The position numbers and the translations under genes were made by a program. 64,000 nt of DNA from Pseudozobellia thermophila (lineage in GTDB: Bacteria; Bacteroidota; Bacteroidia; Flavobacteriales; Flavobacteriaceae): the NCBI RefSeq assembly GCF_900141855.1, contig NZ_FQYU01000001.1, forward strand, positions 1 to 64,000, read 5' to 3'. The notes under the pieces are model-generated. The model was not told the origin of the DNA. It was given only the letters and a program-made list of their open reading frames with translations, and did no database searches. Shown here in pieces: positions 1,380 to 37,497 of this stretch (position 1 is its first letter; each line of letters begins with the position of its first letter).

Positions 1380-4300
1380 TTAATATTCCCCTACTTGAAC
1401 GATTTCTCCCAGATAATTCAATCTCACCTTAATTATTCCATCTAACTTTTCAGGTGTTTGAAGGAATTGGTATTTCTTTCCAGACAACATCTTAAGTTTT
1501 TTTAAATCATCCCCTGTTGTCGCCTGAGTTTCCAGATGATGAGAAAACATATAATTTTTTGTTGAGATTTTCTGAACCCGAAACAAATTTGGGCTAATCA
1601 AGGCTGCATTTTTCCCATCCATCAAATCAATTTCCTTTGGCTCAAAATTTTCCGAAGGAAAAACAAACATTTCATTCTGCTTCATTGTAAACTTAAATTT
1701 CCATCCTAAGTTTACATTATAATCTTTGTCTACAACAGGTAAGCCTTCGTTTACTCTGGCAACAGCCTCATAAAACGAAACGACTTTTTCTTGCAGCTTT
1801 CCATCTTTATCCTCATAAATGGCTACATGGTGATTATTTCCAGTGCTCACATAGTCAACAGGTATCGCTTGCCCGTTGTCATCTAAAATTTCATTTCCTA
1901 AATGATCTTTGGCCGTATGAAGAGGTTCGGCATTGTTAACACCTTTAATGGTAACCCGTTTTATAGAAATACCCTTTTCTTTATTTAACCAAATAGGGTG
2001 TTTGTCTAAGTTGGAAAATGCTTCTTTTGCATTGTTTCCGTATTCGTTCAATCGTTCTTTAAGTACAGCTTTTATTTTTTCATCAATAACCTTTTCGATT
2101 TTTAGTTCGGGCCCAATTTCCTTTCTTATCGTATAAACCTCTTCAAAACACATGACCTCTTTTAAAGATTCTCCTTTATAGAATAAAGGTTGTTTCTTTA
2201 TTGTTTTGGCATCAAAGGCCTGTTCTCCATTATTGTTAAACTGTGCCAAATGAGATAACACCAATTCTCTTTGTGCTTTGTCTATAATTAATTTTGCCTG
2301 TTCTATCGTAAAGCGCTTATTGAGTTTGGTTGCCTTAGCTTGTGGTTGTTTTATTTTGCCGTAAACGGTTTCTTTATGTAATTGTCCTCTAGGCGTTAAT
2401 TGAACCTTGGCATTATACTTACCACCACCTTTCTTTGTTTTATTAATGTTCTGGGTTACGACTTTGTTTTTGGTTTTAAAGGAAATTAAAATGGATTCTA
2501 TATGCTCTTTGGCTTTTGACCTAAAATTGGGCATTGGAGGAATAAACTTTCGTTTACTATTACCATTTTTGTCTTTATACACTTTGGTAATCGTGTTTTT
2601 CAAGGCATAAAGTGGGCTATTTTCCAAATCAATACCGCCATCCTTTAAACTATGATAAGTGTTTAGGTTATTTAGGTACTGTATATGATTATGTGTGGTA
2701 AAAGCAACGGTTAAAGCATCCATGGCATGGTGTCTATGGTCATTTCTTTTGGTCCAATCTTTAATAACCTCAATTTTTTTACCATTTTTCCGCTCTTCCA
2801 TTTCTGTTAAGCCCAAAGCACGGTATTTAGGTAAATTGAGTTCCTTCATTACGTTTATTAAATCCCAATCTTCACGTAACTTATCTGTAATACTACCTGA
2901 AGTGGACACTACATTCCTAAACACTTCATAAAGCATTTGTTTGGCTTTCTTGGCTATGTATTGGCTATTACGTAAATCGCGCTCAATAAATCCATCGGGC
3001 AACTTGCTTTTTGTCATTAACAGCTTATTGCGCTTGGCTTTCGATATATACCCCCCTTTGAACAACTCCTCTACACGTAGCTCATAATTCTCTAAATCTG
3101 ACTGATAATCTTGGGCAATAAAATCGTAGGCTGTACGATCGGCCTTTTTTAAGTTGTCTTTCTTGAAAGCCAAGGTCTTGTTTGAATAAGAATCATCAAA
3201 CAACATGGCCTTGGGGATAATATGTTCAATATCTATTTTTTTGCTAAATAAATCCTCGTGTTTGATTTGGGTGTTGGTAAAAATATCTTTAAAACCCCTT
3301 GTTTCTAATTCCTTCCACAAACGGTATCGGACCACATCGTTTTTAGTAGGATTAGGGATACCAAATTCTTTGGTAATGGTCTTTCTTATATCTTCATTAC
3401 GCTTGGTAGCATCTGCGATACTTTTGGTCATATCGGCACGTTCCTTGGCCGACTTTTTAAGCTCTCTGGCCAATTCAATTCGTACTTCGTCAGGTTTGCC
3501 ATACGTTTCAATAACCTGGTTAACAAGGTTAACCATTTGATTTAATATTTTCTCTACAACAGGGTTACGTAAACTGTTTTTCTTAAGCAATTCCAATGAC
3601 GGTTTCAGTACCCTGTTCGCTTGTTCTTCTGCGGTTAAACTATTGGAATGGTTATAGCCTGCCAAATCACATGCTTCCGAATAGACATGTCCCTCTTTTA
3701 GGTAAGGTAAAATCTTTCTAATTGCTTTTGAGGACAGATTGCCATAATCGGGCTGTAGTGCCATATTGGCCAACATTGCCACATATTGTGGTTTAAAACC
3801 ATACTTAAGATTTAGTTTCTTTTTTAGAGCCACACTCGAGTTTCCATAAACGAGCTTGTCTTCTTCTGTTATTTTATCGTCTTCTTCGGCAGAATATAAC
3901 AAATGCCACAATTGATAGCTTGCTTGTTTATCAAAGTCATCTTTATCCGCATCAAAATCAAGAATAGCTGCATCGATACCTATTTCTGGGAAAATGGATT
4001 TAAGTTCGCTCTTTATAGCTTTAGCGGATTTTTTTGCCCAATCAAAACCATACCCTTCGTTTTCGGCTATGATTTGATAGACATCATAAAGCGCTTTGTT
4101 GGTTCTATTCCCTTCTATTTTTTCAAAATTGCACTTCCAATCCGAGAGCTTTTTTATCTCTAAAATGTACTTGTTCAGAATTTTTAATATGTCATTTGGT
4201 TTTAAATCACCTCGTAGGTTTAATTCTTCAAAAATGGCTTCTTTTGTTTCCTTATCCAATTTTTGAAATTCAATTATCTTATTCTCTTCGGTATTCCGAA

Positions 4301-5618
4301 ATTCTAGGTTATTTAGGTTCTGCCATATTTTAAACTCTTGAAAAAGTGGGGACGATTTTGGAATTACCTTTCTGCCTATGGTTCTGGCCTTATGTTTTCC
4401 TGTTTCTTTTTCAACATAAGTTTGCTCCCAACTTTCAAACTGACAAAAACTTATCAATCCTTTTTGGGATTTTAACTTACGCTGGTAGAAAATAACCACA
4501 TCTCTAATCTCTTTCTTTAAGTCATCTGTAAGTTCTGGATGATATTTACTCTGTGTTTCCCATAAGGTTTCAAACTCATCAAGATAATCTTGGCGATAAA
4601 ACACTTGGTTTTTTAAGGTAGTATGCGGGTTTTTTAATACCTGTTTATATAAATATTCTCCAACTGTTTCTCCATTAAAATATAAGGCCTTGCTTCTATC
4701 GGAGATTGCTCCTAAATACCCGCTAGACTTGTTTAAATCATTATTGATGTCTTGAAGCACTATCGCTAAATGTTCCAATTCAAGCTTCTGTGTCAAAGCT
4801 TCTACGCGCCATTGATAACGCTGCAAACGTTTTTCAGCAGCCGTACCTTTTTGTTTGATTCCAACAATCTCAAAAGGCTTCTGACAAATAGCCCAAGTTT
4901 GGCTTTTGTTTTTCCCTTCCAAGGCTTTAAATAAATCATCCGTAAGAATATCAGGGTAATATTTTTTTTGAGATTCCCAAACGTTCTTAAACTCATTTTT
5001 TAAATCGGAACGATAAAAATCAGGGATATACTTTTTGTTTTCTTTTAATAACCTCAGCACATACTGTCCTGGAGTTAAACCTTCCTCATATAAGGTTTTG
5101 GCAATCGCCATACCATCTATAGCCTGTCCTTCCTCTTCACTGGTAGCTTTTCTACTACTCTTATATCCTCTTTTCTTGTTGATGGCCAAAAGAACTTTTG
5201 CAAAATCAGTTAAATCAATTTGCTCTTTCGCTGCCAAAGCTCTTAATCTTAGAGTTTCGTGAGTGGTGTTTTTTCCTATTTCGGTTAGAGGAGTATCATC
5301 ATTAATGATATTATTATCTTTTAAAATTGAAATAAGGTTTTCCCTTCTTAATTTGTAGCGTTGCAAATTACGTCTTGCTCCTCTTTTTTGTGTTCTGGAA
5401 GCATTTGGAGAGAGCCCTTTTCCTCCTATAAAATCGGCAATAGGATTTTTTGACTCCGAGACTTTACCAGATTTATCAACCTTACTGAAATTATCATATT
5501 GAATTACTCGAACACCAAGCTTTACAATTTCCGATTTTTCACTGGTATTTTCAGCTTCATCCACCAACGCCCATCCAATAGAGTTGGTTCCTAGGTCCAA
5601 TCCTAAAATTCGTTTCAT
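1380..5618 (-). CDS. cas9: CRISPR-associated endonuclease Cas9 (type II-C)
   Basis: RNA-guided DNA endonuclease of the type II-C family, 1412 residues, within the range of large Bacteroidota Cas9 proteins. The catalytic parts appear intact: RuvC-I with Asp8 in ILGLDLGTNSIGWA, an arginine-rich bridge helix near residues 70-95, RuvC-II glutamate near 713 in DEVRIELAREL, the HNH motif DIEHIIPKAML near 797-807 with its histidine, and RuvC-III HHAMDA near 963. No frameshift or internal stop is seen. The gene is distinctly AT-rich compared with cas1/cas2. No csn2 or cas4 is present, which supports type II-C. A divergent tracrRNA candidate starts about 100 bp upstream. The C-terminal PAM-interacting domain cannot be used here to predict the PAM. 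Confidence 0.97.
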   Translation of the reverse strand: MKRILGLDLGTNSIGWALVDEAENTSEKSEIVKLGVRVIQYDNFSKVDKSGKVSESKNPIADFIGGKGLSPNASRTQKRGARRNLQRYKLRRENLISILKDNNIINDDTPLTEIGKNTTHETLRLRALAAKEQIDLTDFAKVLLAINKKRGYKSSRKATSEEEGQAIDGMAIAKTLYEEGLTPGQYVLRLLKENKKYIPDFYRSDLKNEFKNVWESQKKYYPDILTDDLFKALEGKNKSQTWAICQKPFEIVGIKQKGTAAEKRLQRYQWRVEALTQKLELEHLAIVLQDINNDLNKSSGYLGAISDRSKALYFNGETVGEYLYKQVLKNPHTTLKNQVFYRQDYLDEFETLWETQSKYHPELTDDLKKEIRDVVIFYQRKLKSQKGLISFCQFESWEQTYVEKETGKHKARTIGRKVIPKSSPLFQEFKIWQNLNNLEFRNTEENKIIEFQKLDKETKEAIFEELNLRGDLKPNDILKILNKYILEIKKLSDWKCNFEKIEGNRTNKALYDVYQIIAENEGYGFDWAKKSAKAIKSELKSIFPEIGIDAAILDFDADKDDFDKQASYQLWHLLYSAEEDDKITEEDKLVYGNSSVALKKKLNLKYGFKPQYVAMLANMALQPDYGNLSSKAIRKILPYLKEGHVYSEACDLAGYNHSNSLTAEEQANRVLKPSLELLKKNSLRNPVVEKILNQMVNLVNQVIETYGKPDEVRIELARELKKSAKERADMTKSIADATKRNEDIRKTITKEFGIPNPTKNDVVRYRLWKELETRGFKDIFTNTQIKHEDLFSKKIDIEHIIPKAMLFDDSYSNKTLAFKKDNLKKADRTAYDFIAQDYQSDLENYELRVEELFKGGYISKAKRNKLLMTKSKLPDGFIERDLRNSQYIAKKAKQMLYEVFRNVVSTSGSITDKLREDWDLINVMKELNLPKYRALGLTEMEERKNGKKIEVIKDWTKRNDHRHHAMDALTVAFTTHNHIQYLNNLNTYHSLKDGGIDLENSPLYALKNTITKVYKDKNGNSKRKFIPPMPNFRSKAKEHIESILISFKTKNKVVTQNINKTKKGGGKYNAKVQLTPRGQLHKETVYGKIKQPQAKATKLNKRFTIEQAKLIIDKAQRELVLSHLAQFNNNGEQAFDAKTIKKQPLFYKGESLKEVMCFEEVYTIRKEIGPELKIEKVIDEKIKAVLKERLNEYGNNAKEAFSNLDKHPIWLNKEKGISIKRVTIKGVNNAEPLHTAKDHLGNEILDDNGQAIPVDYVSTGNNHHVAIYEDKDGKLQEKVVSFYEAVARVNEGLPVVDKDYNVNLGWKFKFTMKQNEMFVFPSENFEPKEIDLMDGKNAALISPNLFRVQKISTKNYMFSHHLETQATTGDDLKKLKMLSGKKYQFLQTPEKLDGIIKVRLNYLGEIVQVGEY

Positions 5619-6017: not shown

Positions 6018-6364
6018 ACAGTAGGCAGTGTTCAGTAGGCAGTGTTCTGTGTTCAGTACTCAGTGTGCAGTACGCAGTATGCAGTGTTCAGTAGTTCGTA
6101 GTTTTTAGTTAATAGTTTTTAGTTAATAGTTAATAGTTAGTGAAGTACGCAGTGTGCAGTACTCAGTATGAAGTAAGGAGTAAGCACCACAAGAATCACC
6201 GCCAACCGCCAACTGCTAACTGCTAACTGTTAACTGTTCATTGCTAACTGTTCATTGCTAATTGCTAATTGCTAATTGTTCATTGTAACCTGCCAACTGT
6301 TCACTGCTAATTGTTAATTGTTAATTGCTAATTGTTCATTGTCCACTGCTCACTGCCAACCGCC
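6018..6364. repeat. Heptad tandem-repeat block A with inverted arms
   Basis: The left part (6018-6141) is a run of 7-bp units such as GCAGTGT, TCAGTAG and TTAATAG. The right part (6200-6364) is a run of units such as TGCTAAC, TGTTCAT and TGCTAAT, which are approximate reverse complements of the left units. A non-heptad centre (about 6142-6199) separates them. The transcript or single strand could fold into a long imperfect hairpin. The centre and inner arms are almost identical to block B at 9945-10320. No protein-coding frame is supported here. The flanks 5867-6017 and 6365-6469 show no feature. Confidence 0.9.
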
Positions 6365-9944: not shown

Positions 9945-10320
9945 GTAGGCAGTGTTCAGTAGCAGTACTCAGTGCGCAGTGTTCAGTGTTCAGTGTTCAG
10001 TAGTTCGTAGTTTTTAGTTTTTAGTTAATAGTTACTAGTTAGTGAAGTACGCAGTGTGCAGTACTCAGTATGAAGTAAGGAGTAAGCACCACAAGAATCA
10101 CCGCCAACCGCCAACTGCAAACTGCCAACTGCCAACTGCCAACTGCTAACTGCTAACTGCCAACTGCTAACTGCTAACTGCTAACTGTTAACTGTTAACT
10201 GTTCATTGCTAACTGTTCATTGCTAATTGCTAATTGCTAATTGTTCATTGTAACCTGCCAACTGCAAACTGCCAACTGCTAACTGTTAATTGTTCATTGT
10301 TCATTGCTAATTGATAATTG
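9945..10320. repeat. Heptad tandem-repeat block B with inverted arms
   Basis: Same design and orientation as block A: left units (GCAGTGT, TCAGTGT, TTTTTAG, TTAATAG), the same non-heptad centre (about 10042-10103), then right units (CGCCAAC, TGCTAAC, TGTTCAT, TGCTAAT). It contains extra copies of TGCCAAC/TGCTAAC compared with block A. Near-identity of the centres with variable heptad counts points to recent duplication or gene conversion plus slippage. Confidence 0.9.
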
Positions 10321-10422
10321 TCTTATTAACCAATTCAAACCCTGGATCCTATCAAGATGCGTAGTACCGGGTATGGGCTAGTTGGTGAGAAAGAAACTCA
10401 GGTACGTTATAAAACAAAAAAA

Positions 10423-14652: not shown

Positions 14653-14700
14653 AAAACAAAAAAGCCCCCAACTTGCGTTGAAGGCTTTTTGCGGTCTGGA
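14653..14700. repeat. Direct repeat, tRNA-Asp-proximal copy (att-like)
   Basis: Identical over 48 bp to 11898-11945. Here the repeat continues into the complete tRNA-Asp gene. The two copies bound about 2.7 kb that carries only the AbiE pair. Confidence 0.8.
14658..14690 (-). terminator. Terminator of tRNA-Asp
   Basis: On the minus strand AAAAAGCC pairs with GGCTTTTT, followed by further T residues, immediately after the tRNA 3' end. The same hairpin is duplicated at 11903-11935. Confidence 0.8.
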
Positions 14701-32318: not shown

Positions 32319-32657
32319 TTAAAGTTCTTCCGGGGCCAGCTCTACCTCGAGTCCGTCCATTTCTTCCGAAATATGTAACTGACAACCCAAACGGCTATTT
32401 TCCTTTACATTAAAGGCCTCGGCAAGCATTGCTTCCTCGTCATCCGACTTTTCGGGAAGCTCATGGTCCGATAAAATATAACACTGGCAAGAAGCGCACA
32501 TGGCCATACCGCCACAGATACCTATGGTACCTTCGGGAGCCAATTCGTACGAGCGAACCACCTCCATGAGGTTCATGTTCATATCGGTCGGGGCGTCGAC
32601 CTCATGGGCAACACCATCCCGGTCGGTAATTTTTATTTTTATATCACTCATTGACAA
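32319..32657 (-). CDS. 2Fe-2S ferredoxin (adrenodoxin/ISC type)
   Basis: 112 residues. Cluster ligands Cys48, Cys54, Cys57 and Cys92 (GICGGMAMCASC, then LGCQL) follow the C-x5-C-x2-C-x(n)-C pattern of vertebrate/ISC-type ferredoxins; Cys59 is extra. It is the last gene after mrp-nifU-fnr on the same strand and is a likely electron acceptor or donor of the FNR-type reductase at 33116. The repeat-flanked S23-like gene separates the two, probably by insertion. Cytoplasmic. Confidence 0.92.
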   Translation of the reverse strand: MSMSDIKIKITDRDGVAHEVDAPTDMNMNLMEVVRSYELAPEGTIGICGGMAMCASCQCYILSDHELPEKSDDEEAMLAEAFNVKENSRLGCQLHISEEMDGLEVELAPEEL

Positions 32658-32660
32658 GGG

Positions 32661-32709
32661 AATTAGTAGTAAGTAGTTAGTAGTTAGGAGTTAGGAATTA
32701 GGAGTTAGT
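32661..32709. repeat. Heptad-repeat arm, left side of the S23-like gene (block D)
   Basis: About seven 7-bp units related to GTTAGTA/GTTAGGA run from 32661 to 32709. The stop codon and last few codons of the S23-like gene lie inside this arm. The units match the left arms of blocks A and B (GTTAATA, GTTAGTG). Confidence 0.85.
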
Positions 32710-33066
32710 TGATTTGCTTCGGGTCATTGATTGTATGAGACCGAAAAGCATTTTAGAAATTTCGTTTGATTGTTCAATTAATTTGGATGTCTCTTCAGAG
32801 CCCAAAAAATTCAGTCTTTTTGATAAATATAGCATTGACCTTACCTCACTATTTGAGCTTGTTGCAAAATATAAAAATCTAATGAAATCAGGGTTCGTAC
32901 TTCGGTCAAAACCTTCAGCTATATTATTGGAAATAGATATGGAAGCTCTTAGGATTTGGTCTTTAAAGGAGTAATCTCTAGAATCGGAAAAATTTTGATA
33001 AATCGCTACAGCAAAATCTTGTGCTTTTTGCCACACCAATAAATCCTCAAATTTTTTAACAGCCAT
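32698..33066 (-). CDS. S23/IVS-type four-helix-bundle protein within heptad-repeat arms
   Basis: 122 residues. The signature of the 23S rRNA intervening-sequence protein (Avd-like four-helix-bundle) family is plain: FEDLLVWQKAQDFAVAIY at 6-23, FKDQILRASISISNNIAEGF at 34-53, and FLYFATSSNSEVRSMLYLSKR at 64-84. All four helices are predicted and length is normal. Family members are trimer/pentamer helical bundles; relatives include Avd of diversity-generating retroelements, but no reverse transcriptase is nearby. The C-terminal codons and stop come from the heptad repeat. It sits between the FNR and ferredoxin genes, in the same direction. AT content is higher than that of the flanking genes, which supports insertion. 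Confidence 0.9.
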   Translation of the reverse strand: MAVKKFEDLLVWQKAQDFAVAIYQNFSDSRDYSFKDQILRASISISNNIAEGFDRSTNPDFIRFLYFATSSNSEVRSMLYLSKRLNFLGSEETSKLIEQSNEISKMLFGLIQSMTRSKSTNS

Positions 33067-33092
33067 TATTTCGGTTACGCTAGTTATATTTT

Positions 33093-33113
33093 CCTAACAC
33101 CTAACACCTAAGT
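33093..33113. repeat. Heptad-repeat arm, right side of the S23-like gene (block D)
   Basis: CCTAACA-CCTAACA-CCTAAGT, three 7-bp units that are the inverse complement of the left arm's GTTAGGA units. It ends two bases before the stop codon of the FNR gene and begins 26 bp before the S23-like start codon. Confidence 0.8.
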
Positions 33114-33115
33114 CC

Positions 33116-34174
33116 TTAATTTATACTTTTAACAACCGCCTTTGGCGCTTCTTTTTTACTACCGTCGAAACCGGTGACCCCGCCAACGGTCGTGTATTTC
33201 ATCACATACTTTTTATCGGGGTAAATACGTTGATAGGCACTTTGACACATCAGTGTGGCTTCGTGAAAGCCACAAAGGATCAGTTTCAACTTTCCGGGAT
33301 AGGTGTTGACGTCGCCTATGGCGTAAATACCCGGTACGTTGGTCTGATAATCGAAGGTGTCTACCTTTATCGCGTTTTTCTCGATCTCGAGCCCCCAATC
33401 GGCAATGGGCCCCAATTTTGGGGAGAGTCCAAAAAGCGGTACAAAATTATCGACTTCCAGGGTAACAACCTCATCAGGATTTGTTGTTTTTCTGACAGAA
33501 ACGGCTTCCAAGGTGTCTTCGCCGTGCAATCCGACGATTTCGGCGGGTGTAATCAAATTGATCTTCCCTTCGTTTTTAAGCTGCTGTACTTTTTCAACCG
33601 AATCCAGGGCTCCCCGGAATTCGTTTCTCCGGTGGACCAAGGTAACCTCTGAGGCCACATCGGCCAAAAAGATACTCCAGTCAAGTGCAGAATCGCCCCC
33701 TCCGGCAATAACCACCCTTTTATTGCGGTATACTTCGGGGTCTTTGATCATATAGGCGACCCCATTGTCCTCGTATTTCCGTAGGTTGTCGAGCAAGGGC
33801 TTTCGCGGCTCGAAACTTCCCAGCCCACCGGCTATCGCCACTATGGGAGCTTGGTGCTTGGTCCCCTTGTTGGTCGTAACGACAAAGGATCCGTCATCGA
33901 GCTTTTCAATGGTCTCCGCCCTTTCGCCCAGGGTAAACCCCGGTTGAAAGGGTTCGATCTGTTTCATTAGGTTGTCGACCAGGTCACCGGCCAACACTTC
34001 GGGAAAACCGGGAATATCGTAAATGGGTTTTTTAGGATAGATTTCGGAACACTGTCCGCCCGCTTGGGGCAGGGCATCTATTAAATGACATTTGAGCTGT
34101 AACAGGCCTGCCTCAAAAACGGCAAAAAGCCCTGTTGGGCCAGCTCCAATAATCAATATATCTGTTTTGATCAT
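33116..34174 (-). CDS. Ferredoxin-NADP reductase, thioredoxin reductase-like type
   Basis: 352-residue flavoprotein. FAD-binding GAGPTGLF is near residues 10-17, with QAGGQCSEIYPKKPIYDIPGFP-type substrate/flavin region at about 37-58 (only a single Cys, so not a thioredoxin reductase CxxC active site). NADPH-binding VIAGGGDSALDW lies near 150 and GIYAIGDVN near 285. This set matches the TrxR-like ferredoxin/flavodoxin-NADP reductases of Firmicutes and Bacteroidota. Downstream ferredoxin is the likely partner. It follows nifU by 72 bp in the mrp-nifU-fnr-fdx operon. Confidence 0.9.
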   Translation of the reverse strand: MIKTDILIIGAGPTGLFAVFEAGLLQLKCHLIDALPQAGGQCSEIYPKKPIYDIPGFPEVLAGDLVDNLMKQIEPFQPGFTLGERAETIEKLDDGSFVVTTNKGTKHQAPIVAIAGGLGSFEPRKPLLDNLRKYEDNGVAYMIKDPEVYRNKRVVIAGGGDSALDWSIFLADVASEVTLVHRRNEFRGALDSVEKVQQLKNEGKINLITPAEIVGLHGEDTLEAVSVRKTTNPDEVVTLEVDNFVPLFGLSPKLGPIADWGLEIEKNAIKVDTFDYQTNVPGIYAIGDVNTYPGKLKLILCGFHEATLMCQSAYQRIYPDKKYVMKYTTVGGVTGFDGSKKEAPKAVVKSIN

Positions 34175-35913: not shown

Positions 35914-37221
35914 ATGATTGAAAAGGCACCCTTATTCATACCAAGTTCAGATATTGAAAAGCAGCGGGAATCCTTATTCTTGTTAAAGACCCAACACCCT
36001 TTTCCAACAATCGAAAAAGAATATCTATACTGGGACAAAATAAAGTATTTGGAAAGTTCAAAATTTTCTAAGAACACCTTATGGTTTAACACAAAATGGA
36101 AGAGAAGTATCACTCAAAATCGCCTCCAATTAGGAGTTTCAAATTATGCAATCAAATACACGCATAATGTAAATGAGTACCTCCAACAAAAACTCCACTA
36201 CTTGGATTTCAATTTCGGGGCAGGTCTTCAAAAGGAAAAACTGCTTTCTGATTTAGACAAGGAGCAATATCTTAATAATGCCCTTATGGAGGAATCTATT
36301 TTTTCCTCTATGGTAGAAGGCGCTACGACTACTCGTGTCAAAGCCAAAGAAATGCTTCGAAAAAAGAAAAAGCCAAAAAATAAATCGGAGCAAATGATCC
36401 TTAATAATTACCAGGCCATTCAATTTATTAGCGAAAATCAAGAGGAAGATTTATCCATTGATAAGTTGCTCGAAATTCACCGACTAGTAACCCATAATAC
36501 TTTAGAGGATGATAATATAGGTGTCTTTCGAACGTCCGATGATGTCCATGTAATGAACCACATTACTGGTGAAATTATCCATACTCCACCAAAATTTAAA
36601 GAACTTCATGAGCTAATGCAATCGTTCTGTGAATTCTTTAACTCTAACCCTAAAGAGAACTTTGTTCACCCTATCGTTAAGGCCTCCATTCTTCATTTTC
36701 TAATCGGTTATATACACCCTTTCGTAGATGGAAACGGAAGAACAGCTCGTGCCATATTTTACTGGTATCTTTTGAAAAACGGTTATTGGCTGGCTGAATA
36801 TCTTTCTATTTCAAGGGTAATTATGAAGTCGAAAGTACAATATGAAAAAGCCTATATCTACACGGAAATTGACGATATGGACGTAACATATTTTGTCCAC
36901 TACCAAGTAAAGGTGCTTACTCAGGCTTTTGAAGATTTAAAAAAATACGTTGCCAAAAAGAAAAAAGAAAAGCTGAATTTTTCCAAATTTTTAAAAATCG
37001 ATGGCATTAACGAACGACAGGCCCAAATACTATTTTGGATTGAAAAAGATAAAAATCGTGCTTTTACCGTTAAAGAAATACAAACTATTTTTTCAATTAC
37101 TAATCAAACGGCCCGAACCGATTTGGAAGGACTGGTTTCACGGGAATTTCTTAAAAAAGTGCCCATTGATAAAAAATCGTCCAACTATTGGAAAGGTAAC
37201 CGGTTCGAATCACTGACCTAA
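35914..37221 (+). CDS. Fic-domain protein with N-terminal inhibitory motif and C-terminal winged helix
   Basis: 435 residues. The Fic catalytic loop HPFVDGNGRTAR is at about 268-279 with the catalytic His. An inhibitory (S/T)xxxE(G/N) motif, SSMVEG, lies at about 132-137, so this is a class II (N-terminal) self-inhibited Fic. A C-terminal winged helix (about 370-430, FTVKEIQTIFSITNQTARTDLE) probably binds DNA. Fic enzymes AMPylate proteins using ATP. The architecture is common in Bacteroidota genes called Fic/DOC-type regulators. The gene is AT-rich compared with neighbours and isolated between two operons, suggesting recent acquisition. No separate antitoxin gene is present. Target protein unknown. 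Confidence 0.88.
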   Translation: MIEKAPLFIPSSDIEKQRESLFLLKTQHPFPTIEKEYLYWDKIKYLESSKFSKNTLWFNTKWKRSITQNRLQLGVSNYAIKYTHNVNEYLQQKLHYLDFNFGAGLQKEKLLSDLDKEQYLNNALMEESIFSSMVEGATTTRVKAKEMLRKKKKPKNKSEQMILNNYQAIQFISENQEEDLSIDKLLEIHRLVTHNTLEDDNIGVFRTSDDVHVMNHITGEIIHTPPKFKELHELMQSFCEFFNSNPKENFVHPIVKASILHFLIGYIHPFVDGNGRTARAIFYWYLLKNGYWLAEYLSISRVIMKSKVQYEKAYIYTEIDDMDVTYFVHYQVKVLTQAFEDLKKYVAKKKKEKLNFSKFLKIDGINERQAQILFWIEKDKNRAFTVKEIQTIFSITNQTARTDLEGLVSREFLKKVPIDKKSSNYWKGNRFESLT

Positions 37222-37340
37222 AAAAAGTACATTGCGCCATTCTCCATGCTCCATATTAACCATTAACAATCCGGTTGATATTGGCCGTGTCCTTCTTCGG
37301 ACTGGATCAGTAATCCCTAGGCAGAGAAGGCACCCTTCCT

Positions 37341-37497
37341 TACTGCATACTGATAATTGCTAATTGCAAACTGCCTACTGCCTACTGCCTACTGCCCACT
37401 GATAATTGTTAATTGCAAACTGCCCACTGCCTACTGCACACTGCACACTGCCAACTGCCAACTGCCAACTGCCAATTGTTAATTGTCCAATGTTCAC
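37341..37497. repeat. Heptad tandem-repeat block C (right-arm units only)
   Basis: About 22 units of 7 bp such as TGCCTAC, TGATAAT, TGTTAAT and TGCCAAC, the same unit family as the right arms of blocks A and B. No clear left arm is seen in 37222-37340. The block runs into the stop codon of the downstream-facing permease gene at 37494. It contains no supported coding sequence. Confidence 0.85.

What the first reader, a model, noticed from the sequence alone, without database searches (positions are those of the whole stretch)
32656..33117. S23-like gene enclosed by inverted heptad-repeat arms: possible free-standing IVS-like element inserted in an operon
A four-helix-bundle S23/IVS protein gene (32698-33066) lies between 7-bp-periodic arms that are inverse complements (GTTAGGA units at 32661-32709, CCTAACA units at 33093-33113). 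The stop codon and last codons of the gene are made from the left arm. The unit starts two bases after the FNR stop and splits FNR from its likely ferredoxin partner, as an insertion would. In 23S rRNA genes, intervening sequences (Leptospira, Coxiella) have the same design: paired arms around an S23 ORF. Here it is outside rRNA. The same unit family occurs without a gene at 6018, 9945 and 37341. A self-mobilising or RNA-folding element of this kind is, to my knowledge, not well described.
Basis: partly seen in the sequence, partly recalled or inferred. Interest (0 to 1): 0.72.

Follow-up and report, generated by a model that had tools for sequence, protein, structure and literature searches.

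The report
Stem-armed S23 element inside an operon
A small gene known from spacers in bacterial ribosomal RNA also travels, with matching repeat arms on both sides, into the gaps between neighbouring protein genes, which suggests where the puzzling seven-letter repeats of many bacterial genomes come from.

Summary
An S23/IVP gene (PF05635, Avd-like fold) lies between co-directed FNR and ferredoxin genes, enclosed by complementary 7-nt-periodic arms (0 of 2000 shuffles reach the score). It is one case of a widespread design. At 103 sites, arms match their own partner (14.4) better than partners of other copies (8.2; permutation maximum 9.3); 90 of 101 sites are co-directed with both neighbours, against 279 of 504 control triplets. 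Relatives have empty junctions of a few bases. In two Nostoc plasmid alleles (93% identical) different S23 elements occupy adjacent junctions, each empty in the other allele; DNA shared with unrelated loci ends at the arms' outer edges: arm-S23-arm moves as a unit. The published Coxiella rRNA IVS has the same design, heptamers included. Conclusion: IVS-like elements outside rRNA; at FNR-fdx one old insertion, often lost. RNase III-type excision is inferred; two tests for a selected sense-RNA stem gave no support. Heptad arrays are rare in S23-free relatives. GxxExxY genes show a parallel design with arms of about 10-nt period. How the unit moves is unknown.

The parts
32698..33066 (-). S23/IVP four-helix-bundle ORF (122 aa), cargo of the element
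   Evidence: PF05635 3.1e-34, TIGR02436; AF2 pLDDT 94.8; Foldseek to 2gsc, 2rld and, weakly by E-value, DGR Avd 4dwl; dN/dS median 0.15 among the 23 copies of this site (132 of 253 pairs usable)
33091..33115 (-). 5' arm on the gene strand, heptads TTAGGTG (AGT/AGG type); the paired segment runs on into the FNR stop codon
   Evidence: pairs with the 3' arm in MFE and centroid
32659..32709 (-). 3' arm on the gene strand, heptads CTAACTC/CTAACTA; contains the S23 stop codon and last codons
   Evidence: TRF period 7/14, scores 59 and 67; best paired core 32670-32697
33116..34174 (-). upstream operon neighbour, FNR (TrxR-like flavoprotein)
   Evidence: same junction occupied in 24 of 80 genome-contig loci
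32319..32651 (-). downstream operon neighbour, 2Fe-2S ferredoxin
6019..6364 (.). heptad arrays without a gene (AGT type then ACT type); core 6138-6208 identical to 10040-10110
   Evidence: complementarity not above shuffles
9949..10321 (.). second gene-free heptad array; a third copy of its core lies on contig C15
   Evidence: complementarity not above shuffles
37341..37486 (+). single-polarity (ACT type) heptad array after a Fic gene

Best explanation
It is an IVS-like element outside rRNA: a unit of about 420 bp made of a 7-nt-periodic 5' arm, a sense S23 ORF and a complementary 3' arm, placed between stop and start codons of two genes of one operon and in the direction of their transcription. 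SHOWN by sequence: the unit and its boundaries (in plasmid copies), empty and occupied alleles, arm pairing specific to each copy, co-direction, purifying selection on S23 at FNR-fdx. INFERRED: it has no promoter of its own and is carried on the host's polycistronic mRNA; the arms pair into a stem of about 20-35 bp that loops out the S23 ORF; RNase III or a similar enzyme cuts the stem, as shown for 23S IVS, so that the two host cistrons are freed and the insertion is nearly neutral; heptads let the stem tolerate gain or loss of repeat units; S23, a pentamer with the fold of the RNA-associated Avd, binds the stem and helps maintenance or spread. How it moves is unknown; a cDNA route is a guess prompted by the Avd fold. 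At FNR-fdx it entered once in a Flavobacteriaceae ancestor and has been lost repeatedly since.
For: Arms specific to each copy: 99 of 111 loci usable, own 14.9 versus 8.65, maximum of 5000 permutations 9.89; one copy per site, n=103, 14.43 versus 8.18, maximum 9.30; within the FNR-fdx clade n=23, 13.1 versus 10.9, 0 of 5000. Other genes of the same loci: 15 of 436 reach 13, some of these being further S23 copies or their neighbours; away from S23 6 of 350, of similar size 1 of 119. Period 7 (autocorrelation 0.64, 0.63, 0.60, 0.55 at lags 7, 14, 21, 28). Co-direction: 90 of 101 distinct sites versus 279 of 504 control triplets, Fisher p 1.4e-11. Arms fill the junction: upstream stop to 5' arm median 2 nt, 3' arm to next start median 10 nt (72 of 90 sites). 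Empty junctions interleaved with occupied ones on the FNR+fdx tree, 10 changes, 3 forced by well supported branches. Unit boundaries and empty plasmid alleles. Plasmid copies (14 cyanobacterial, Azospirillum, Bernardetia) have such arms in 14 of 16, own 19.5 versus 8.4. 23S IVS of Coxiella: complementary ends, sense S23 ORF, RNase III cleavage in the stem, heptamers in the 5' end (PMC4990558).
Against: A.C mismatches outnumber G.U ones in the sense strand (110 versus 77, p 0.019), the reverse of what a selected sense-RNA stem predicts, though mismatched pairs show the same ratio (605 versus 412); sense duplexes are not more stable than antisense ones (p 0.32; difference from mismatched pairs p 0.75). 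14 of 90 sites have direct, not inverted, arms and 26 neither at this cut-off. Of the 15 plasmid loci with annotated neighbours 11 are co-directed with both, 3 antisense to both, 1 mixed. Folding energy of the whole window element is ordinary. No very recent duplicate inside a genome was seen (best 81%). The unit encodes no transposase, nuclease or RT, and no clear target-site duplication is visible.
Confidence: 0.7

Rival explanations
1. S23 is a host-serving, trans-acting RNA-binding regulator: the pentamer binds heptads in intercistronic spacers of many operons, and the arms around its own gene give autoregulation. Solo arrays before start codons are its regulon.
For: Heptad pattern hits 6.1 per genome in 38 S23+ genomes versus 0.41 in 22 S23- genomes; in G022 18 of 20 arrays lie between co-directed genes in ACT polarity, most of them (by eye) next to the start codon; purifying selection at FNR-fdx; MacGregor 2015 proposed a post-transcriptional regulator for TAACTGA arrays (PMC4679880, abstract).
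Against: Arms differ in sequence from copy to copy, so one protein reading one motif is hard to see; frequent loss at FNR-fdx and interrupted copies; solo arrays in the genome-contig loci are mainly AGT type (17 of 24 between co-directed genes; 14 of these 17 within 25 bp of the upstream stop codon), so no uniform regulon architecture.
Confidence: 0.15
2. A DNA-level element: arms are terminal inverted repeats maintained by cruciform or template-switch repair and moved by a host or plasmid recombinase; co-direction only reflects the need for a promoter.
For: No support for a selected sense-RNA stem; boundaries at the arms; 11 of 28 plasmid records with S23 are typed conjugative; antisense copies exist on plasmids.
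Against: Arm sequences are not shared between distant copies as transposase sites would be; no visible target-site duplication; strong co-direction on chromosomes; no match in 50,697 phage records.
Confidence: 0.22
3. An ordinary operon gene flanked by chance low-complexity repeats.
For: S23 genes are common in the relatives (38 of 60 genomes) and the FNR-fdx copies are inherited vertically.
Against: Permutation and control-gene tests, empty sites, movement as a unit with arms.
Confidence: 0.03

Closest known systems
23S rRNA intervening sequences (IVS) with an S23p ORF (Leptospira, Coxiella; PMC4990558)
   Same: complementary ends enclosing a sense S23 ORF, about 430 bp, sporadic presence, heptamers (GACAGAT) of variable number before the ORF, recurrent insertion points tolerant of interruption
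   Different: here in protein-coding operon junctions, not in rRNA; RNase III excision not tested; S23 under purifying selection at FNR-fdx
Heptameric intergenic repeats: TAACTGA arrays (MacGregor 2015, PMC4679880), cyanobacterial STRR, GGGAATC of Xanthomonas (PMC4692102), heptamer class in PMC6344855
   Same: 7-nt tandem units in intergenic spacers, 7-nt indels, Cyanobacteria and Bacteroidetes among the hosts; inverted pairs reported in Xanthomonas
   Different: no S23 gene was connected with them in the passages read; their function was called unclear
Avd of diversity-generating retroelements (4dwl, 8ub7)
   Same: four-helix-bundle fold, TM 0.70-0.79
   Different: 11-13% identity and Foldseek E only 0.014 at best; the window gene's neighbours are FNR and fdx, not RT, TR or VR
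MITEs / insertion sequences
   Same: short inverted arms, scattered sites
   Different: arms shared only by close copies, no transposase, no visible duplication, strong co-direction

Membership tests
23S rRNA IVS | inserted in a helix of pre-23S rRNA | tested here: not met
   lies between FNR and fdx; the only Rfam or tRNA match in the window is tRNA-Asp at 14691
23S rRNA IVS | complementary arms enclosing the ORF | tested here: met
23S rRNA IVS | sense S23p (PF05635) ORF | tested here: met
23S rRNA IVS | heptamers in the 5' end | tested here: met
   for Coxiella from the paper
23S rRNA IVS | excision by RNase III | not testable with these tools
   needs RNA
DGR / Avd | Avd fold | tested here: met
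   TM 0.70-0.79, Foldseek probability 1.00 but E 0.014 at best
DGR / Avd | RT with TR/VR next to it | tested here: not met
   neighbours are FNR and fdx; no RT was sought elsewhere in the genome
MITE / IS | terminal inverted repeats shared by copies | tested here: not met
   own versus other arms; closely related copies do share them
MITE / IS | target-site duplication | tested here: inconclusive
   junctions of ten plasmid alleles read by eye: none clear; an ATG occurs on both sides at one junction
Heptameric (STRR-like) repeats | tandem 7-nt units in intergenic DNA | tested here: met

The most novel reading that the evidence does not exclude
Bacteria hold a broad class of transcript-borne, stem-armed elements that live in operon junctions: S23 elements with 7-nt arm grammar (rRNA IVS being their rRNA branch) and GxxExxY elements with about 10-nt arm grammar. 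The protein reads or shapes its own arms, spread goes through the excised RNA with an Avd-like RNA-binding pentamer, and solo or decayed arms are the source of the abundant heptameric intergenic repeats. S23 genes inside cas operons are then passengers rather than Cas proteins.
Probability: 0.3. Interest if true: 0.92.

Novelty: new variant of a known kind. Interest (0 to 1): 0.8.

Why it matters
IVS elements have been known chiefly as inserts in rRNA of unclear origin; here the same module (arms, heptamers, S23) is found in protein operons of at least three phyla, with plasmid alleles that show it moving as a unit. It gives a testable origin for the heptameric intergenic repeats, about which one survey wrote that there is no clear clue to their function (PMC6344855, passage), it offers a plain reading of S23/IVP genes reported in cas loci (PMC3936711, passages), and it suggests a role for a pentameric Avd-fold protein of unknown function. 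Nature has also supplied test pairs: nearly identical operons with and without the element.

Tried and rejected
G.U test for a selected sense-RNA stem: no support; raw counts lean the other way (77 versus 110, p 0.019) but equal the ratio of mismatched pairs. Same question with duplex energies: no difference. Whole-element folding z-score: uninformative for the window (-0.10), -3.3 for L002. Recent duplication inside genomes: best pair 81% identical, so none shown. Gene-free arrays of the window as complete 'empty hairpins': complementarity not above shuffles. Uniform polarity of solo arrays: G022 is ACT type (18 of 20; partner score below 13 in all 20, 12 in two) but the genome-contig loci are mostly AGT type (17 AGT, 5 ACT, 2 neither), so no single rule. 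The tool's control for the heptad pattern (the pattern read backwards) is itself a heptad pattern and shows the same contrast (from one search's means, about 7.9 hits in S23+ and 1.4 in S23- genomes), so the contrast speaks for heptads in general, not for this one motif. S23 in phages: no match. Literature searches that listed no paper joining S23 genes outside rRNA with heptad arms: (open-access library only; most listed papers were not opened). Site clustering may oversplit: L062/L063 share the upstream gene. The S23 tree is the quick one; the careful search did not finish. Rows dropped before counts: 12 of 111 loci (short ORF or flank); ORFs covering under 75% of the profile; 3 of 104 sites without both neighbours; 121 of 253 pairs (saturated or not computable); 3 of 30 GxxExxY loci; 16 of 28 plasmid records were used; L112 (same place as L001) and L141 were left out of the tree.
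Full report
WHAT IS THERE. In the window an S23/IVP gene (32698-33066, minus strand) lies between FNR (33116-34174) and a 2Fe-2S ferredoxin (32319-32651), all on one strand. On the gene strand the order is FNR stop, 5' arm of TTAGGTG heptads, S23, 3' arm of CTAACTC heptads (in which the S23 stop lies), ferredoxin start. The arms are complementary beyond 2000 dinucleotide shuffles (15.5; maximum 14.0), and the MFE and centroid folds of the sense RNA pair them around the ORF, although the folding energy of the whole stretch is ordinary. The same genome has one more TIGR02436 gene, between ruvC-like and hemW-like genes (names from memory of the ORFs), with arms of another heptad (CAATTAG/CAATGAA against TTAATTG) that again pair with each other, in a fold with z -3.3.

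ARMS BELONG TO THEIR COPY. I collected 80 loci from genome contigs by protein similarity (248 stretches encoded a relative, the best 80 were kept) and further copies from 60 genomes of the same family or order, own included (38 of the 60 have the family; further stretches). Of 111 loci 99 were usable: the best autocorrelation lag is 7 or 14 in 74 upstream and 72 downstream flanks, and the complementarity of a copy's own two arms (14.9) exceeds that of mismatched arms (8.65; maximum of 5000 permutations 9.89). With one copy per genomic site (n=103) the numbers are 14.43, 8.18 and 9.30, and inside the FNR-fdx clade (n=23) 13.1 against a permutation mean of 10.9, none of 5000 as high. Other genes in the same loci rarely do this: 15 of 436, or 6 of 350 once S23 surroundings are removed and 1 of 119 of similar size, against 50 of 90 co-directed S23 sites with inverted arms; 14 of the 90 have direct arms and 26 neither. 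In paired arm segments the match at lags 7, 14, 21, 28 is 0.64, 0.63, 0.60, 0.55. The 5' arm has more G than C in 77 of 86 loci, less in 6.

PLACE AND DIRECTION. 167 distinct copies fall into 104 sites by their two neighbours; of 101 sites with both neighbours 90 are co-directed with both, 9 with one, 2 with neither, against 279 of 504 control triplets co-directed with both (Fisher p 1.4e-11). The median distance from the upstream stop to the 5' arm is 2 nt and from the 3' arm to the next start 10 nt (72 of 90 sites with a paired segment of score 13 or more). Recurrent junctions include FNR|fdx, one before an rfbA-like gene, a fadJ|fadA-like one and a pdh-like one (names from memory of the protein ends shown); several of these need more than one S23 clade on the tree. 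In cyanobacterial plasmids S23 lies between cas6 and cas4 and between cas10 and a cmr3-family gene. 14 of 16 plasmid copies examined have complementary arms (own mean 19.5, mismatched 8.4); of the 15 with annotated neighbours 11 are co-directed with both, 3 antisense to both and 1 mixed, so co-direction is weaker there.

EMPTY SITES. Of 30 ferredoxin loci (own genome and 29 relatives; 40 of the 60 genomes had a match and the best 30 were made into loci), 5 relatives had no FNR in the stretch. Among the other 24 relatives one is occupied (its S23 interrupted by a stop), 22 are empty with gaps of -16 to 92 bp, 16 of these at most 24 bp, and one has a 1155-bp gap that I did not resolve. One empty site (L125) keeps a 24-bp stretch like a 3' arm, TTCCTAGCTCCTAATTACTTTTTT. 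24 of the 80 genome-contig loci are occupied at this junction; three of these (L009, L010, L011) have S23 frames cut short. On a tree of FNR+fdx, 26 occupied and 22 empty rows are interleaved (10 changes, 3 forced by starred branches), while the S23 proteins of this site form one clade (23 rows, support 97, quick tree) with median dN/dS 0.15 (132 of 253 pairs). I read this as one old insertion, selection on the protein, and repeated loss.

MOVEMENT AS A UNIT. A Nostoc plasmid operon exists in several alleles, most of them 89-94% identical to that of pC052_D. In pC052_D, pNsp_a and pNPM1 a first junction holds an S23 element (TTCTAA|ATCAGGAGTC...|ATGCAAATC; shortened gene annotated in pNPM1); in pNsp_c, pC052_A, pC052_B, p057_H and pNsp_b the same junction is 3 bp (for example TTCTAG|GTT|ATGCAAATC); p057_A and the Halotia allele have another short ORF there. 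In pNsp_c the next junction holds a different S23 element, while the other eight alleles read there have -1 to 4 bp (pNsp_c and pC052_D are 93% identical). The first element matches Aulosira, Trichormus (two records) and Scytonema plasmids at 78-81% DNA identity from query position 952-970 to 1370, i.e. arms plus ORF, and the alignment falls to background on both outer sides; Trichormus and Scytonema share one locus, Aulosira has another. So arms and gene move together. No target-site duplication is evident to the eye.

HEPTADS AND S23. A three-unit heptad pattern occurs 6.1 times per genome in 38 genomes with S23 and 0.41 times in 22 without (p 6e-6 per Mb; for genomes of 2.5 Mb or more, 35 against 8, p 0.004; expected by chance about 1 to 1.6 in 3.3 Mb). 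The backward-read control, itself a heptad pattern, shows the same contrast, and lineage may confound it. In 742.5 kb of genome-contig loci 62 heptad segments lie within 350 bp of S23 and 43 elsewhere. Solo arrays in one genome (20 stretches of G022) have no partner arm at the cut-off of 13 (two reach 12) and 18 of 20 lie between co-directed genes in ACT polarity; in the other set AGT-type arrays prevail (17 of 24; 14 of the 17 within 25 bp of the upstream stop). This fits remnants but also a regulatory reading.

A PARALLEL FAMILY. GxxExxY genes (TIGR04256; 18 of 60 genomes; 27 of 30 loci usable) also have arms that fit their own copy (own 14.4 versus 8.2; 16 of 27 at 13 or more; own 13.6 against a permutation maximum of 10.2 with slightly shorter flanks) and 23 of the 25 with both neighbours are co-directed, but their arms have a weaker period near 10 (0.40 at lag 10, 0.32-0.34 at 20-22, against 0.22-0.31 at most other lags), not 7. 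An unrelated protein thus sits in the same architecture with another arm grammar.

PROTEIN. AF2 (pLDDT 94.8) gives a four-helix bundle; nearest solved structures are XCC0516 (2gsc) and BT_0352 (2rld), then DGR Avd alone and in the RT-RNA complex (TM 0.70-0.79, 11-13% identity, E 0.014 at best). A paper on DGRs already notes the PF05635-Avd likeness (PMC10053308, passages).

MECHANISM. Best reading: a passenger of operon transcripts whose stem is cut out of the RNA as 23S IVS are (RNase III, shown in vitro for the Coxiella IVS; PMC4990558, passages and Discussion). That paper also reports tandem heptamers GACAGAT of variable number before the S23 start codon, which joins the rRNA IVS to the operon elements. 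Two tests that could have favoured a sense-RNA stem, G.U excess and sense/antisense stability, gave no support, so RNA excision stays an inference, and spread through cDNA is a guess.

LITERATURE. Seen: passages of PMC4990558, PMC3936711, PMC6344855, PMC4692102, PMC4853749, PMC8934634, PMC11270868, PMC10053308; abstract, section 10 and passages of PMC4679880; the Discussion of PMC4990558. 23S_rRNA_IVP has been reported in cas loci and in 16S and 23S insertions of CPR. I found no paper that links S23 genes outside rRNA with heptad arms (ten searches of an open-access library, listed under Tried and rejected); subscription papers are not covered.

Noticed in passing
L203-L232 (GxxExxY loci of relatives): GxxExxY (TIGR04256) genes carry own-copy complementary arms with a weak period near 10 nt and are co-directed with their neighbours in 23 of 25: a second, unrelated protein in the same architecture.
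   Followed up: partly
window 6138-6208, 10040-10110; G000 C15 409-479: Three copies (99-100% identical over 71 bp) of a gene-free heptad core in one genome; the first lies upstream of a cas9-like ORF (1380-5618), a name given from the ORF start and its small neighbours only.
   Followed up: partly
L236, L237, L239: S23 genes sit inside I-D and III-B cas operons of cyanobacterial plasmids (cas6|cas4, cas10|cmr3); complementary arms in L236 and L237, direct heptads in L239.
   Followed up: partly
L055: Three S23 copies at 62-74% identity within one 10-kb stretch of a Chitinophagaceae MAG.
   Followed up: no
L275 610-1288: Two consecutive short ORFs annotated as four helix bundle protein in Nostoc pNsp_b, with a LAGLIDADG gene and an IS630 transposase gene about 5-6 kb away.
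   Followed up: no
L077: Glaciecola (Gammaproteobacteria) S23 57% identical to the window's protein, inside the Bacteroidota part of the quick tree: likely transfer between phyla.
   Followed up: no
window 35914-37486: Fic/HTH gene followed by a one-polarity heptad array before a convergent gene.
   Followed up: no
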